From: an uncultured beta proteobacterium
GTDB taxonomy: Bacteria; Pseudomonadota; Gammaproteobacteria; Burkholderiales; Burkholderiaceae
Direction of reading: 5' to 3'
DNA length: 64,000 nt
NCBI GenBank assembly: GCA_903900805.1
Contig: CAIUOP010000027.1
Location: 1 to 64,000 of the forward strand
Both the position numbers and the translations under genes were made by a program. Below, one piece after another: positions 3,654 through 7,763 of the stretch. Every line of letters starts with the position of its first letter. Position 1 is the first letter of the stretch. The notes under the pieces are model-generated. The model was not told where the DNA came from. It saw only the letters and a program-made list of their open reading frames with translations, and made no database searches.

Positions 3654-4457
3654 CTAATTACAGTGTTTTGCAAGGTATTGGGCTATTTGCTCCTGACTAT
3701 GCAAAGCAAGCGCCTTACGATCAATAGATAAATCGGGGGTGGCCTTTACAGGTGTAAAAATGGTTAATTCCACCCTGAGCCTACGGTTTTTTAATATCTT
3801 GGCCATAGATTCGATCAAACCCATATCCCCGATAAAGGCCGGTACCTCAGAATGTTGTCCTGTATATCGATCAAAGTAGGCTAGCGCCAATGCGCACACC
3901 GGAACTTCTGAGATTGCTGCAGCCTCAAATAAATTAGGTTTAAAAGACTGAACACTTTTACCAATGGTAGAAGTACCTTCAGGAAAAATACAAACCGATT
4001 GCGTTTTGAGTATCGCTGCCATGCCATCAACTACCTGCTTAGCATGTCTTGAGCTATCTCTTTTAATAAATACAGTGCCTAGTTGCTGTGCCATCCACCC
4101 AAAGATGGGCCACTGTTCAACTTCCGACTTAGCTACAAAACGAACTGGCTTAAACGCATTGATGGCATGAATATCCATCCAGGACACATGATTTGATACA
4201 AGCAAATAAGATGATTGTGGCAATAAGTTAGCATGATTAATATGCAACTCAACCCCGAATATCTTCAACAACCGCTTTGACCATCTTTGTATATGCTGAC
4301 TCTTAGTACCCACGCTTAAAAATGGAAATAACAAAAGCAGTGTAATTACTCCCCTTAGAACATGTAGCCAGACTGCAATCCAAAGTGCCACATAAATAAA
4401 AAATGGGGTAATGCTGGCCGTGGGTCGTTTTGTATGGGTCATAAAAGCTATTTTCAT
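3654..4457 (-). CDS. 1-acyl-sn-glycerol-3-phosphate acyltransferase family, OlsA/PlsC-like
   Basis: NHVSWMDI (NHx4D) and FPEGTS motifs, N-terminal hydrophobic helix. Confidence 0.85.
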   Translation of the reverse strand: MKIAFMTHTKRPTASITPFFIYVALWIAVWLHVLRGVITLLLLFPFLSVGTKSQHIQRWSKRLLKIFGVELHINHANLLPQSSYLLVSNHVSWMDIHAINAFKPVRFVAKSEVEQWPIFGWMAQQLGTVFIKRDSSRHAKQVVDGMAAILKTQSVCIFPEGTSTIGKSVQSFKPNLFEAAAISEVPVCALALAYFDRYTGQHSEVPAFIGDMGLIESMAKILKNRRLRVELTIFTPVKATPDLSIDRKALALHSQEQIAQYLAKHCN

Positions 4458-4481
4458 GTCATATGCTAAAGCATACAGGCA

Positions 4482-4525
4482 TAGTCATAAAAGTGACTCA
4501 GAAGTGTCATGAAGCTTACATAGTG
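4482..4525 (+). promoter_or_regulatory. candidate Pho box upstream of the PlcP-like gene
   Basis: TAGTCATAAAA|GTGACTCAGAA|GTGTCATGAAG|CTTACATAGTG: four contiguous 11-nt units, then 12 nt to TAATAC (4534-4539). Confidence 0.65.
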
Positions 4526-4545
4526 CATTGGCCTAATACAAACTC

Positions 4546-5355
4546 ATGATGCATTACAGAGCCATCTGGATTTCAGACGTACACCTAGGTACATCGGGGT
4601 GTCAGGCAAACTACCTCTTGGATTTCTTAAAGCACAATGAGGCCGATAAGCTTTATTTAGTAGGGGACATCATTGATGGCTGGAGATTGAAAAAATCATT
4701 CTACTGGCCCCAAACCCATAACGATGTGGTTCAAAAGCTATTACGCAAAGCGCGCAAAGGCTCAGAAGTTATCTATGTACCAGGCAATCATGACGAAAGT
4801 GCCAGACAGTTTTTTGGCTTGTCATTTGGCGATGTCAAAGTTGTCGAGGAGTGTATTCATACCACTTTAGATGGCAGGAAACTCTGGATAACTCATGGGG
4901 ACTTATTTGACGGTGTCATGCAATATGCTAAGTGGCTGGCATATGTAGGCGATACGCTCTACTCCTTCATTCTGTATGTCAATCGCTACTTCAATATGTT
5001 GCGAGTCAAAATGGGCTTGCAATACTGGTCCCTTTCTCAATACCTAAAGCACCAAGTTAAAAATGCGGTCAGCTATATCGCTGACTTTGAACACATCATG
5101 GCTAGAGAAGCCCGCCTGCGCGGTTGTGATGGCGTGGTGTGTGGCCATATTCATAAAGCAGAGATCCGTGAAATCGATGGCCTGCTCTACTGCAACGATG
5201 GTGATTGGGTAGAAAGTCTGAGCGCCCTCGTTGAAACTCACACTGGCGAGCTCAAAATTATTTACTGGACCCATATCAAGGGCGAACCAGTTGGAACGCC
5301 AGAACTGTCTTTCCAACCTGCTGTTGCATCACTTCTCAAAGAGGCCGTACTATGA
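4546..5355 (+). CDS. plcP: calcineurin-like metallophosphoesterase, PlcP-like (LpxH-related); candidate phospholipase C for lipid remodelling
   Basis: SDVHLG, GDIIDGW, GNHDE, THGDLFDG, GHIHKAEI metallophosphoesterase motifs; overlaps the start of a glycosyltransferase gene (ATGA), as expected for a plcP-agt pair. Confidence 0.75.
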   Translation: MMHYRAIWISDVHLGTSGCQANYLLDFLKHNEADKLYLVGDIIDGWRLKKSFYWPQTHNDVVQKLLRKARKGSEVIYVPGNHDESARQFFGLSFGDVKVVEECIHTTLDGRKLWITHGDLFDGVMQYAKWLAYVGDTLYSFILYVNRYFNMLRVKMGLQYWSLSQYLKHQVKNAVSYIADFEHIMAREARLRGCDGVVCGHIHKAEIREIDGLLYCNDGDWVESLSALVETHTGELKIIYWTHIKGEPVGTPELSFQPAVASLLKEAVL

Positions 5356-6380: not shown

Positions 6381-6391
6381 GAGAGACCCGG

Positions 6392-6799
6392 TTGAATACT
6401 AAATATCACATCGATCAAAATCCTCATAAAGGTAATCGAGGATTAACCAGAGCCTGGCATGCAGCTAAGAACTCTTGGTGCGGTCTGGTATATGCCTTTC
6501 TAGAAGAGAGCGCATTTAGGCAGGAGTTAAGTCTATTTGCCCTACTAACACCTATTGCCTTCTTTCTACCCGTTGGCTATCTGGAAAAAGCACTCTTAGT
6601 GTCATCTCTGATTATGGTCTTGGTGGTAGAGCTACTCAATTCCAGCGTTGAGGCAGCGATTGATCGCATCTCCTTTGAGCACCATGATTTATCCAAAAGA
6701 GCGAAGGATTTTGGCTCAGCAGCAGTGATGTTGGCCTTGTTTATAGCCCTTTTAATGTGGTCTGCAGTATGCATACCACTTGTCTTCAAATTGTCATAA
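6392..6799 (+). CDS. dgkA: diacylglycerol kinase
   Basis: GLxxAxxxxxxF...EESAFRQE and VELLNSSVEAAIDR...KRAKDFGSAAV motifs; TTG start. Confidence 0.93.
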   Translation: MNTKYHIDQNPHKGNRGLTRAWHAAKNSWCGLVYAFLEESAFRQELSLFALLTPIAFFLPVGYLEKALLVSSLIMVLVVELLNSSVEAAIDRISFEHHDLSKRAKDFGSAAVMLALFIALLMWSAVCIPLVFKLS

Positions 6800-6839
6800 A
6801 CTCCCCCTAAGATTATCTAAACCTTTACTAAGGCTAACT

Positions 6840-7763
6840 ATGTCAGATATCCCAAACCCATTTGGCGCTTTTGAGATCTTTTCTTTCAAAAGGGAAAAGA
6901 ATCTATCTGCCTCCAAACTAAATCCGATTAAGAAGCTTTCTAAAAAGCTAGCTAAAAAGCTCTTTGGTAAAAAGTTTGCTACCAAAGCACGTGTGCAATT
7001 GGCTACTGCTCAAGTGCCATCTAAAGTAAGCCCGATTACTAAATCGAAAAGGCCAGCTTTTCATGTCGAGTGGGCAAGCTCCTTAAGCGAAGTAAAAGAA
7101 GCGCAACGATTACGTTATAAAGTTTTTGCTGAAGAGATGGGCGCAAACCTTGCTCAAAATGCAGAAGGTCTAGATGTAGATGAATTTGATGTTTATTGCG
7201 ATCACCTTTTGATCCGCGATCAAGATACTCTCAAGGTCGTTGGTACCTATCGTGTACTTCCACCCCATAAAGCCCAAGAAATCGGCCGCTTGTATTCTGA
7301 TGTCGAGTTTGATTTAACGCGTTTAGATCATTTACGTCCAAAGCTGGTTGAAGTGGGCAGATCTTGCGTACACCAGGACTACCGTTCCGGAGCAGTCATC
7401 ATGGCCTTATGGAGCGGCTTAGCCCAATACATGCAAAAGAATGGTTACGAGATCATGCTTGGTTGTGCCAGTATCCCGATGGCTGATGGTGGTCACTTTG
7501 CTGCCAGTCTATATAACTCCCTCAGTAATGATCAAATGGCACCCGTAGAGTTTCATGCCTTCCCTAGGCTAGCATTGCCATTAGATAAGCTCAATGGTGG
7601 ACTTGAGGTAGAGGCTCCTCCATTGATTAAAGGCTACCTCAAGCTAGGTGCCAAAATTTGTAGCTCTCCTGCTTGGGACCCTGATTTCAATACAGCCGAT
7701 TTGCTAACGATGTTGCGCTTATCCGAAATTAATCCCCGCTACGCAAAGCATTTTTTAGGCTAG
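6840..7763 (+). CDS. olsB: GNAT-fold L-ornithine N-alpha-acyltransferase-like protein (OlsB-like)
   Basis: EAQRLRYKVFAEEMG, DEFDVYCDHLLIRD, EVGRSCVHQDYR, GCASIP, PAWDPDFNTADL motifs. ATG at 6840 preceded by AAGG; ORF-track start 6780 lies inside dgkA. Confidence 0.8.
   Translation: MSDIPNPFGAFEIFSFKREKNLSASKLNPIKKLSKKLAKKLFGKKFATKARVQLATAQVPSKVSPITKSKRPAFHVEWASSLSEVKEAQRLRYKVFAEEMGANLAQNAEGLDVDEFDVYCDHLLIRDQDTLKVVGTYRVLPPHKAQEIGRLYSDVEFDLTRLDHLRPKLVEVGRSCVHQDYRSGAVIMALWSGLAQYMQKNGYEIMLGCASIPMADGGHFAASLYNSLSNDQMAPVEFHAFPRLALPLDKLNGGLEVEAPPLIKGYLKLGAKICSSPAWDPDFNTADLLTMLRLSEINPRYAKHFLG

What the first reader, a model, noticed from the sequence alone, without database searches (positions are those of the whole stretch)
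3654..7763. Candidate complete phosphorus-sparing membrane-lipid remodelling island (olsA-like <-> plcP-agt-dgkA-olsB)
One divergent locus carries a PlcP-like metallophosphoesterase overlapping (ATGA) an Agt-like GT4 glycosyltransferase, then DgkA and an OlsB-like acyltransferase. An OlsA/PlsC-like acyltransferase is on the other arm. Established knowledge: PlcP releases diacylglycerol from phospholipids and Agt glycosylates it to P-free glycolipids in P-starved marine and rhizobial bacteria; OlsB/OlsA make ornithine lipids. Inference: this cell can swap phospholipids for both glycolipids and ornithine lipids from a single compact locus, embedded beside the Pho regulon. I do not recall this exact five-gene arrangement being described for a (likely freshwater) betaproteobacterium.
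Basis: partly seen in the sequence, partly recalled or inferred. Interest (0 to 1): 0.87.

Follow-up and report, generated by a model that had tools for sequence, protein, structure and literature searches.

The report
Polynucleobacter phosphorus-sparing membrane lipid locus
A common freshwater bacterium carries, in one phosphate-controlled gene cluster kept by nearly all its genus, the enzymes to swap phosphorus-containing membrane lipids for sugar lipids and amino-acid lipids; the pathway is known from marine and soil bacteria, but this gene arrangement and its presence across this lake genus seem undescribed.

Summary
The window belongs to a Polynucleobacter genome. 3654-7763 encodes OlsA-like <-> PlcP-Agt-DgkA-OlsB. 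The phosphoesterase is PlcP, not LpxH: it is 55% identical to the PlcP of the characterised P. aeruginosa plcP-agt pair, separates from LpxH in a tree with 100/100 support, carries GNHD/GHIH where all LpxH tested carry GNRD/GHTH, and the genome has its own LpxH elsewhere. The glycosyltransferase has the catalytic dyad and motifs of known diacylglycerol glycosyltransferases. The OlsB/OlsA pair scores best against OlsB/OlsA models (below their strict cut-offs), and a separate PlsC-like protein exists. All five genes stand in this order in 74 of 74 Polynucleobacter loci long enough to show them. Upstream of plcP lie four PhoB half-sites at 11-bp spacing, in the same register in 80 sequences (best register 11.3 of 14 matches; shuffles at most 4.4), so Pho control is predicted. 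This is a new member of a known kind: plcP-agt is published, and plcP-agt-dgkA, plcP-agt-olsB or olsBA-plcP-agt clusters recur in other Burkholderiales. It is a core locus, not an island. No lipid data exist; the aminolipid head group and the sugar are inferred.

The parts
3654..4457 (-). olsA-like lyso-aminolipid O-acyltransferase (PF01553)
   Evidence: Best NCBIfam models are OlsA (127 and 122 bits) versus 30 for E. coli-type PlsC; acyltransferase motifs NHxxxxD and FPEGT; a separate PlsC-like paralogue is elsewhere in the genome; best own-genome match of the OlsA encoded next to OlsB in L119.
4482..4521 (+). Array of four PhoB half-sites, 11-bp period (4482-4488, 4493-4499, 4504-4510, 4515-4521); predicted Pho promoter of plcP-agt-dgkA-olsB
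   Evidence: Same register in 80 Polynucleobacter sequences; mean match to the Pho-box consensus 11.3/14 at the best register, shuffles at most 4.4; pstS promoters as positive control, phoB/olsB/tonB upstream regions as negative control.
4530..4537 (+). Conserved GGCYTAAT, probable -10 region, about 9 nt before the plcP start codon
   Evidence: Columns -16 to -9 are 86-100% conserved in 80 sequences.
4546..5355 (+). plcP: metallophosphoesterase, phospholipase C type, predicted to release diacylglycerol from phospholipids
   Evidence: 55% identity to the PlcP of the P. aeruginosa plcP-agt1 pair; PlcP/LpxH tree split 100/100 and GNHD/GHIH fingerprint; separate LpxH in the genome.
5352..6380 (+). 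agt: GT4 diacylglycerol glycosyltransferase
   Evidence: 48% identity to the P. aeruginosa Agt1 homologue; GRVAIEKN at 186, FPSKTDTFG at 248, His104, Gly16/82/85, WSRG and FSW motifs as in characterised SAR11 GTcp.
6392..6799 (+). dgkA: diacylglycerol kinase, the only one in this genome
   Evidence: PF01219 2.8e-31; single copy in G000.
6840..7763 (+). olsB-like amino acid N-acyltransferase (first step of aminolipid synthesis)
   Evidence: PF13444 7e-38; best NCBIfam models are OlsB (176 and 166 bits), next OlsF 56.
3631..3648 (-). Pho-box-like site before ppk2
   Evidence: 11 of 14 matches; similar TTGTAATAAAANTGTCAT sites before ppk2 in most relatives shown.
2682..3587 (-). ppk2, polyphosphate kinase 2 (flanking, phosphorus-related)
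   Evidence: TIGR03707 364.7 bits, over the cut-off 301.8; next to olsA in 65 of 74 loci.
7768..9333 (-). ppx/gppA exopolyphosphatase-type, convergent (flanking)
   Evidence: PF02541 5.5e-71; convergent with olsB in 70 of 74 loci.
9947..12028 (-). phoB-phoR two-component system (regulator of the predicted promoter)
   Evidence: TIGR02966 and TIGR02154 over curated cut-offs.

Best explanation
A PhoB-controlled membrane-lipid remodelling locus. When phosphate runs low, PhoB binds the half-site array in front of plcP and switches on plcP-agt-dgkA-olsB. PlcP splits the phosphate head group from phospholipids, giving diacylglycerol; Agt adds a sugar from UDP-glucose or UDP-glucuronate, giving phosphorus-free glycolipids; DgkA turns surplus diacylglycerol back into phosphatidic acid. 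In parallel OlsB joins a 3-hydroxy fatty acid to an amino acid, most likely ornithine, and OlsA, encoded on the other side of the promoter region, adds the second fatty acid, giving a phosphorus-free aminolipid. Shown here: gene identities by sequence, motifs, tree, genus-wide gene order and promoter conservation. Inferred: enzyme activities, sugar, head group, the role of DgkA, and induction by low phosphate.
For: PlcP: 55% identity over 234 aa to the PlcP encoded next to agt in P. aeruginosa (the neighbourhood fits PA3219/PA3218, tested by mutants and enzyme assays in PMC8528852); 100/100 tree split from LpxH and GNHD/GHIH in 26 of 26 PlcP against GNRD/GHTH in 12 of 12 LpxH; own LpxH on contig C61. 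Agt: 48% to the Agt1 homologue and the diagnostic motifs of GTcp (PMC8231724). OlsB and OlsA: best models OlsB and OlsA by wide margins; separate PlsC-like protein; olsB-olsA adjacent in L119 with the orthologue of this OlsA. Pho control: with phoR-phoB in the window. Donor supply: GalU and an NDP-sugar dehydrogenase over cut-off in the genome. Conservation: 74 of 74 loci; 33 of 36 same-genus genomes hold an intact plcP.
Against: No lipid or expression data. OlsA and OlsB score below the strict NCBIfam cut-offs (127 against 300; 176 against 350). OlsA lies on the side that the direct-repeat array does not face, so its control is open; in A. baumannii olsA is not phosphate-regulated (PMC11828411). 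DgkA would remake phosphatidic acid, which works against saving phosphorus, and it is absent from the locus in some deep branches of the genus. The AlphaFold model of PlcP is of low confidence (mean pLDDT 66) and was not used.
Confidence: 0.86

Rival explanations
1. The phosphoesterase is a second LpxH-type enzyme and the cluster serves lipid A or envelope assembly; the name given in public databases (UDP-2,3-diacylglucosamine diphosphatase) would then be right.
For: Public records call this protein LpxH; weak similarity to LpxH structures, E about 1e-4.
Against: 38 bits against a cut-off of 190 for LpxH, while another gene in the genome scores 227; clean tree split and different motifs; overlaps a diacylglycerol glycosyltransferase gene as in P. 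aeruginosa; Pho-type promoter.
Confidence: 0.03
2. Glycolipid remodelling is real, but the OlsB/OlsA pair makes an aminolipid other than ornithine lipid (lysine, glutamine or another head group), or a mixture.
For: OlsB homologues can use other amino acids: lysine in A. baumannii (PMC11828411), glutamine in roseobacters (PMC11631085). Scores here are below the OlsB cut-offs.
Against: OlsB models score far above OlsF, GlsB and acyl-homoserine-lactone synthase models; Burkholderia with OlsB homologues make ornithine lipids (PMC7814305).
Confidence: 0.2
3. The olsA-like gene is a second PlsC (phosphatidic acid synthesis) and does not take part in aminolipid synthesis, or does both jobs.
For: Same Pfam family as PlsC; TIGR00530 93 bits, just under its cut-off of 103. 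OlsA is bifunctional in Rhodobacter capsulatus (cited in PMC11828411).
Against: OlsA models 127 and 122 bits against 30 for E. coli-type PlsC; for the paralogue L103 the OlsA models give 45 and 25 and the PlsC model 47; the OlsA of L119, which sits directly behind OlsB, matches this protein at 151 bits and L103 at 41.
Confidence: 0.12
4. The enzymes work as described but the locus is expressed all the time or in response to another cue, not to phosphate.
For: Expression untested; Burkholderia sensu stricto strains form ornithine lipids constitutively (PMC7814305 abstract).
Against: Four in-register PhoB half-sites conserved in 80 sequences; also Pho-box-like sites before ppk2 and pstS.
Confidence: 0.08

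Closest known systems
plcP-agt1 of Pseudomonas aeruginosa (PA3219-PA3218; PMC8528852)
   Same: PlcP 55% and Agt 48% identical to the pair in L170, same 4-base gene overlap, Pho box upstream.
   Different: No dgkA, olsB or olsA in that locus; a second glycosyltransferase (Agt2) lies elsewhere in P. aeruginosa.
plcP-agt ('type 2') clusters of marine bacteria, SAR11 HTCC7211 and Erythrobacter NAP1 (PMC4796936)
   Same: Same two enzymes in the same order, Pho boxes, MGDG/GADG products.
   Different: The passage on neighbourhood types does not mention dgkA or olsBA beside plcP-agt; the examples are alphaproteobacteria.
plcP-agt of Methylosinus trichosporium OB3b (PMC9239053)
   Same: plcP-agt deletion abolishes GADG; OlsA/OlsB are also in the genome and an ornithine lipid is made.
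   Different: olsA and olsB are given separate locus tags away from plcP-agt.
OlsBA pathway (Sinorhizobium, Burkholderia, Acinetobacter)
   Same: PF13444 N-acyltransferase plus OlsA O-acyltransferase; Pho boxes before olsB in many species.
   Different: Here olsB is the last gene of a plcP operon and olsA is divergent from it.
agt-plcP / agt / olsB-olsA / phoR-phoB cluster in another Burkholderiales family (L119, G056)
   Same: Glycolipid and aminolipid genes together, next to phoRB.
   Different: No dgkA found, different order, more distant glycosyltransferases (28-32% identity).

Membership tests
PlcP (remodelling phospholipase C) | Groups with characterised PlcP and apart from LpxH | tested here: met
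   Tree split 100/100, P. aeruginosa PlcP on the PlcP side; 55% identity.
PlcP (remodelling phospholipase C) | Metal-binding motifs DxH, GDxxD, GNHD, THGD, GHIH intact | tested here: met
   D11/H13, D41/D44, N81-H82-D83, H117, H201/H203 invariant in alignment A1.
PlcP (remodelling phospholipase C) | Releases diacylglycerol from phospholipids; needed for glycolipid formation in starved cells | not testable with these tools
   Needs biochemistry or a mutant.
LpxH | Score above the TIGR01854 cut-off (190 bits) | tested here: not met
   38 bits; the genome's LpxH at C61 scores 227.
LpxH | GNRD and GHTH motifs as in the 12 LpxH compared | tested here: not met
   GNHD and GHIH.
Agt/GTcp diacylglycerol glycosyltransferase (GT4) | GRVAxEKN and FPSxTDTFG motifs with Asp (not Glu) as catalytic residue, His104, and Arg/Trp for diacylglycerol | tested here: met
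   GRVAIEKN (186), FPSKTDTFG (248), His104, WSRG, FSW.
Agt/GTcp diacylglycerol glycosyltransferase (GT4) | Makes MGDG and/or GADG from diacylglycerol | not testable with these tools
   UDP-sugar genes are present, activity untested.
OlsB | PF13444 domain with OlsB as best-scoring named family | tested here: met
OlsB | Score over an NCBIfam OlsB equivalog cut-off | tested here: not met
   176 against 350 and 166 against 320. Filed as OlsB-like, not as a proven ornithine-specific OlsB.
OlsA | OlsA models ahead of PlsC models, with a separate PlsC-like protein in the genome | tested here: met
   127/122 against 30 bits; L103 is the PlsC-like paralogue.
OlsA | Score over an NCBIfam OlsA equivalog cut-off | tested here: not met
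   127 against 300; filed as OlsA-like.
Pho regulon member | Conserved Pho box in the promoter and PhoBR present | tested here: met
Pho regulon member | Induced by phosphate starvation through PhoB | not testable with these tools
   Needs expression data.

The most novel reading that the evidence does not exclude
Polynucleobacter, a widespread freshwater genus, runs two phosphorus-free lipid programmes (glycolipid and aminolipid) as one genus-wide Pho-controlled unit with a built-in diacylglycerol recycling kinase, and the unit decays in a few reduced genomes. This would make lipid remodelling a core trait of free-living lake bacteria and not only an ocean adaptation.
Probability: 0.6. Interest if true: 0.6.

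Novelty: new member of a known kind. Interest (0 to 1): 0.45.

Why it matters
PlcP-Agt lipid remodelling has been studied mainly in marine, rhizobial, methanotrophic and Pseudomonas species. Finding a complete Pho-controlled version as a core locus of Polynucleobacter, which has many cultured strains, gives a direct, testable handle on how lake bacteria save phosphorus, and it shows that a large family of database entries named LpxH is misnamed.

Tried and rejected
LpxH identity: rejected. AlphaFold model of PlcP from an 11-sequence alignment: pLDDT 66, not used for a fold search. Structures by sequence: only weak LpxH matches for PlcP, none for OlsB. Generic sigma-70 scan: no more promoters than in shuffles and nothing at the plcP promoter, as expected for a Pho promoter without a -35 box. 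The single-window Pho-box search is not significant on its own (10 matches, 6.3 expected); the evidence comes from conservation across 80 sequences. Pho boxes pointing at olsA: reverse-strand scores stay at about 8 of 14, what the mirror of the array gives, so no claim is made. Literature: no paper with Polynucleobacter and PlcP, and only one passing co-mention of Polynucleobacter with ornithine lipid; the library does not hold most subscription papers.
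Full report
What is there. The window is contig C27 of a 1.9-Mb, 92% complete genome. The best named relatives of its genes are Polynucleobacter (PlcP 97% identical in P. nymphae), a freshwater betaproteobacterium. Two flanking genes are also phosphorus-related: ppk2 behind olsA and ppx/gppA facing olsB. phoR, phoB, phoU, the pst genes and an alkaline phosphatase follow.

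PlcP or LpxH. The LpxH model finds two genes in the genome: one on contig C61 with 227 bits, over the cut-off, and 4564-5229 with 38 bits, far below it. In a tree of 26 PlcP and 12 LpxH, nearly all from the same order, the two groups separate with 100/100 support, and the PlcP of P. aeruginosa falls with ours. All 26 PlcP read GNHD and GHIH; all 12 LpxH read GNRD and GHTH. The P. aeruginosa sequence comes from a plasmid record that holds a copy of a region whose gene content fits PA3219-PA3218 (that match rests on my own knowledge of neighbours such as the adenylate cyclase gene; PA locus tags are not printed). PA3219 and PA3218 were tested by mutants and enzyme assays (PMC8528852). Our PlcP is 55% and our Agt 48% identical to that pair; published PlcP proteins differ more from each other (PA3219 is 46-47% identical to the Sinorhizobium and Phaeobacter ones). 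Even so, NCBI, JGI and PLSDB name this protein LpxH or UDP-2,3-diacylglucosamine diphosphatase.

Agt. The characterised SAR11 enzyme GTcp needs His104, Asp256, Arg163, Trp320 and the motifs GRVAxEKN and FPSxTDTFG (PMC8231724). Ours has His104, Gly16, Gly82 and Gly85 at the same numbers, and GRVAIEKN, FPSKTDTFG (with Asp), WSRG and FSW a few residues earlier. Asp rather than Glu at the catalytic place sets this group apart from MshA. Agt1 of P. aeruginosa uses UDP-glucose only; GTcp uses three sugars; so the sugar is open. GalU and one full-length NDP-sugar dehydrogenase are in the genome.

OlsB and OlsA. OlsB models lead by far for 6840-7763 (176 and 166 bits; next OlsF 56). For 3654-4457 OlsA models lead (127, 122), with 30 for E. 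coli-type PlsC; a paralogue on C66 scores 45 and 25 for OlsA and 47 for PlsC and is the likely housekeeping PlsC, and a third is on C52 beside ketosynthase-like genes. In L119, from another family, an orthologue of this OlsA (37%) stands directly behind an OlsB (54%), and it matches our OlsA far better (151 bits) than our PlsC (41 bits). The scores stay under the strict equivalog cut-offs, so I call them OlsB-like and OlsA-like; the head group is most likely ornithine, but lysine or glutamine cannot be excluded.

DgkA. It is the only prokaryotic diacylglycerol kinase of this genome. Its place in the operon suggests that it clears surplus diacylglycerol (inference). It is the loosest member: in deep branches of the genus (G032, G005, G006, G029) it sits elsewhere.

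Regulation. A single-window search for Pho boxes is no better than chance. Across 80 sequences (the window and 79 loci), anchored on the plcP start codon, four half-sites at -64, -53, -42 and -31 appear in the same register, with invariant or nearly invariant letters (GTCAT, TGnC, TGTCAT, TTnCA), A-rich 4-bp spacers between the first three, and a conserved GGCTTAAT at -16 to -9. Mean matches to CTGTCATNNNNCTGTCAT are 11.3, 10.6 and 9.9 of 14 at the three registers, against at most 4.4 in shuffled sets. The sequences are related, so this is not a probability, but neighbouring columns vary freely. pstS promoters, the positive control, score 10-13 in the window and relatives shown; regions before phoB, olsB and tonB score 6-9. 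The published Pho-controlled P. aeruginosa plcP scores 10 by the same measure. ppk2 has its own Pho-like site. The array is directional towards plcP; whether it also serves olsA is open.

Distribution. In 74 of 74 loci long enough to hold all five genes, the order and strands are the same, with the 4-bp plcP/agt overlap in 71. Of 36 same-genus genomes, 33 have an intact plcP; G023 has it split by a frameshift, G017 keeps only a 115-residue start joined by a deletion to the end of olsB, and G027 has neither plcP, olsB nor dgkA. In 120 genomes across the order, 58 have PlcP (E up to 1e-30) and 82 have OlsB. By my count from those tables, 47 genomes outside the genus have both, and in 9 of them the two lie within 10 kb: G038, G043, G048, G056, G095, G104, G131, G138, G142. 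The same-family genome G153 and the small genomes G077 and G121 have plcP-agt-dgkA without olsB beside it; G142 has plcP-agt-olsB; G043 has olsB-plcP-agt. The likely history is a plcP-agt-dgkA trio to which olsB and olsA were added on the Polynucleobacter line (inference). The exact five-gene order was not seen outside the genus in the loci examined.

Mechanism and verdict. The best reading is a Pho-controlled switch from phospholipids to glycolipids (PlcP, Agt) and aminolipids (OlsB, OlsA), with DgkA as a return path. Identity and order are shown by sequence; activity and induction are inferred from characterised relatives. It is a new member of a known kind with a tidy arrangement in an ecologically important, cultured freshwater genus for which no such report was found. 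I score it 0.45: solid, useful and testable, but not surprising to a specialist.

Noticed in passing
window 4546-5355; and one search hits: Public databases name this PlcP family LpxH or UDP-2,3-diacylglucosamine diphosphatase, although the true LpxH is a separate gene; GNHD/GHIH against GNRD/GHTH tells them apart in all 38 sequences compared.
   Followed up: yes
window 4521-4548: The conserved GGCTTAAT lies only about 9 nt before the plcP ATG and no Shine-Dalgarno is visible, so the plcP message may be leaderless.
   Followed up: partly
L123 (G017), L124 (G023), G027, L087: The locus is decaying or lost in a few genomes of the genus: truncated plcP joined to the end of olsB and split olsA (G017), frameshifts in plcP and olsA (G023), complete absence (G027), a split olsB and divergent dgkA (L087, P. 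necessarius PPGSP2).
   Followed up: partly
window 3654-4457 and loci L023-L102: olsA changes much faster across the genus (46-83% identity) than plcP, agt or ppk2 next to it (mostly 80-97%). No reason is known.
   Followed up: no
window 3631-3648: ppk2 has its own Pho-box-like site, similar in most relatives shown, so polyphosphate kinase 2 is probably also in the Pho regulon here.
   Followed up: partly
L170 (NZ_CP137508.1 22379-33080): Three P. aeruginosa plasmid records carry a copy of what appears to be the chromosomal plcP-agt region; either chromosomal capture or an assembly matter.
   Followed up: no
G000:C52:33817-34170 (L105): A third PlsC-family acyltransferase lies beside ketosynthase-like genes, possibly an aryl-polyene-type lipid cluster.
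   Followed up: no
window 16674-18128: An alkaline phosphatase gene lies directly beside pstS; no Pho box was found before it, and its upstream region is the end of the neighbouring glmM-like gene.
   Followed up: partly
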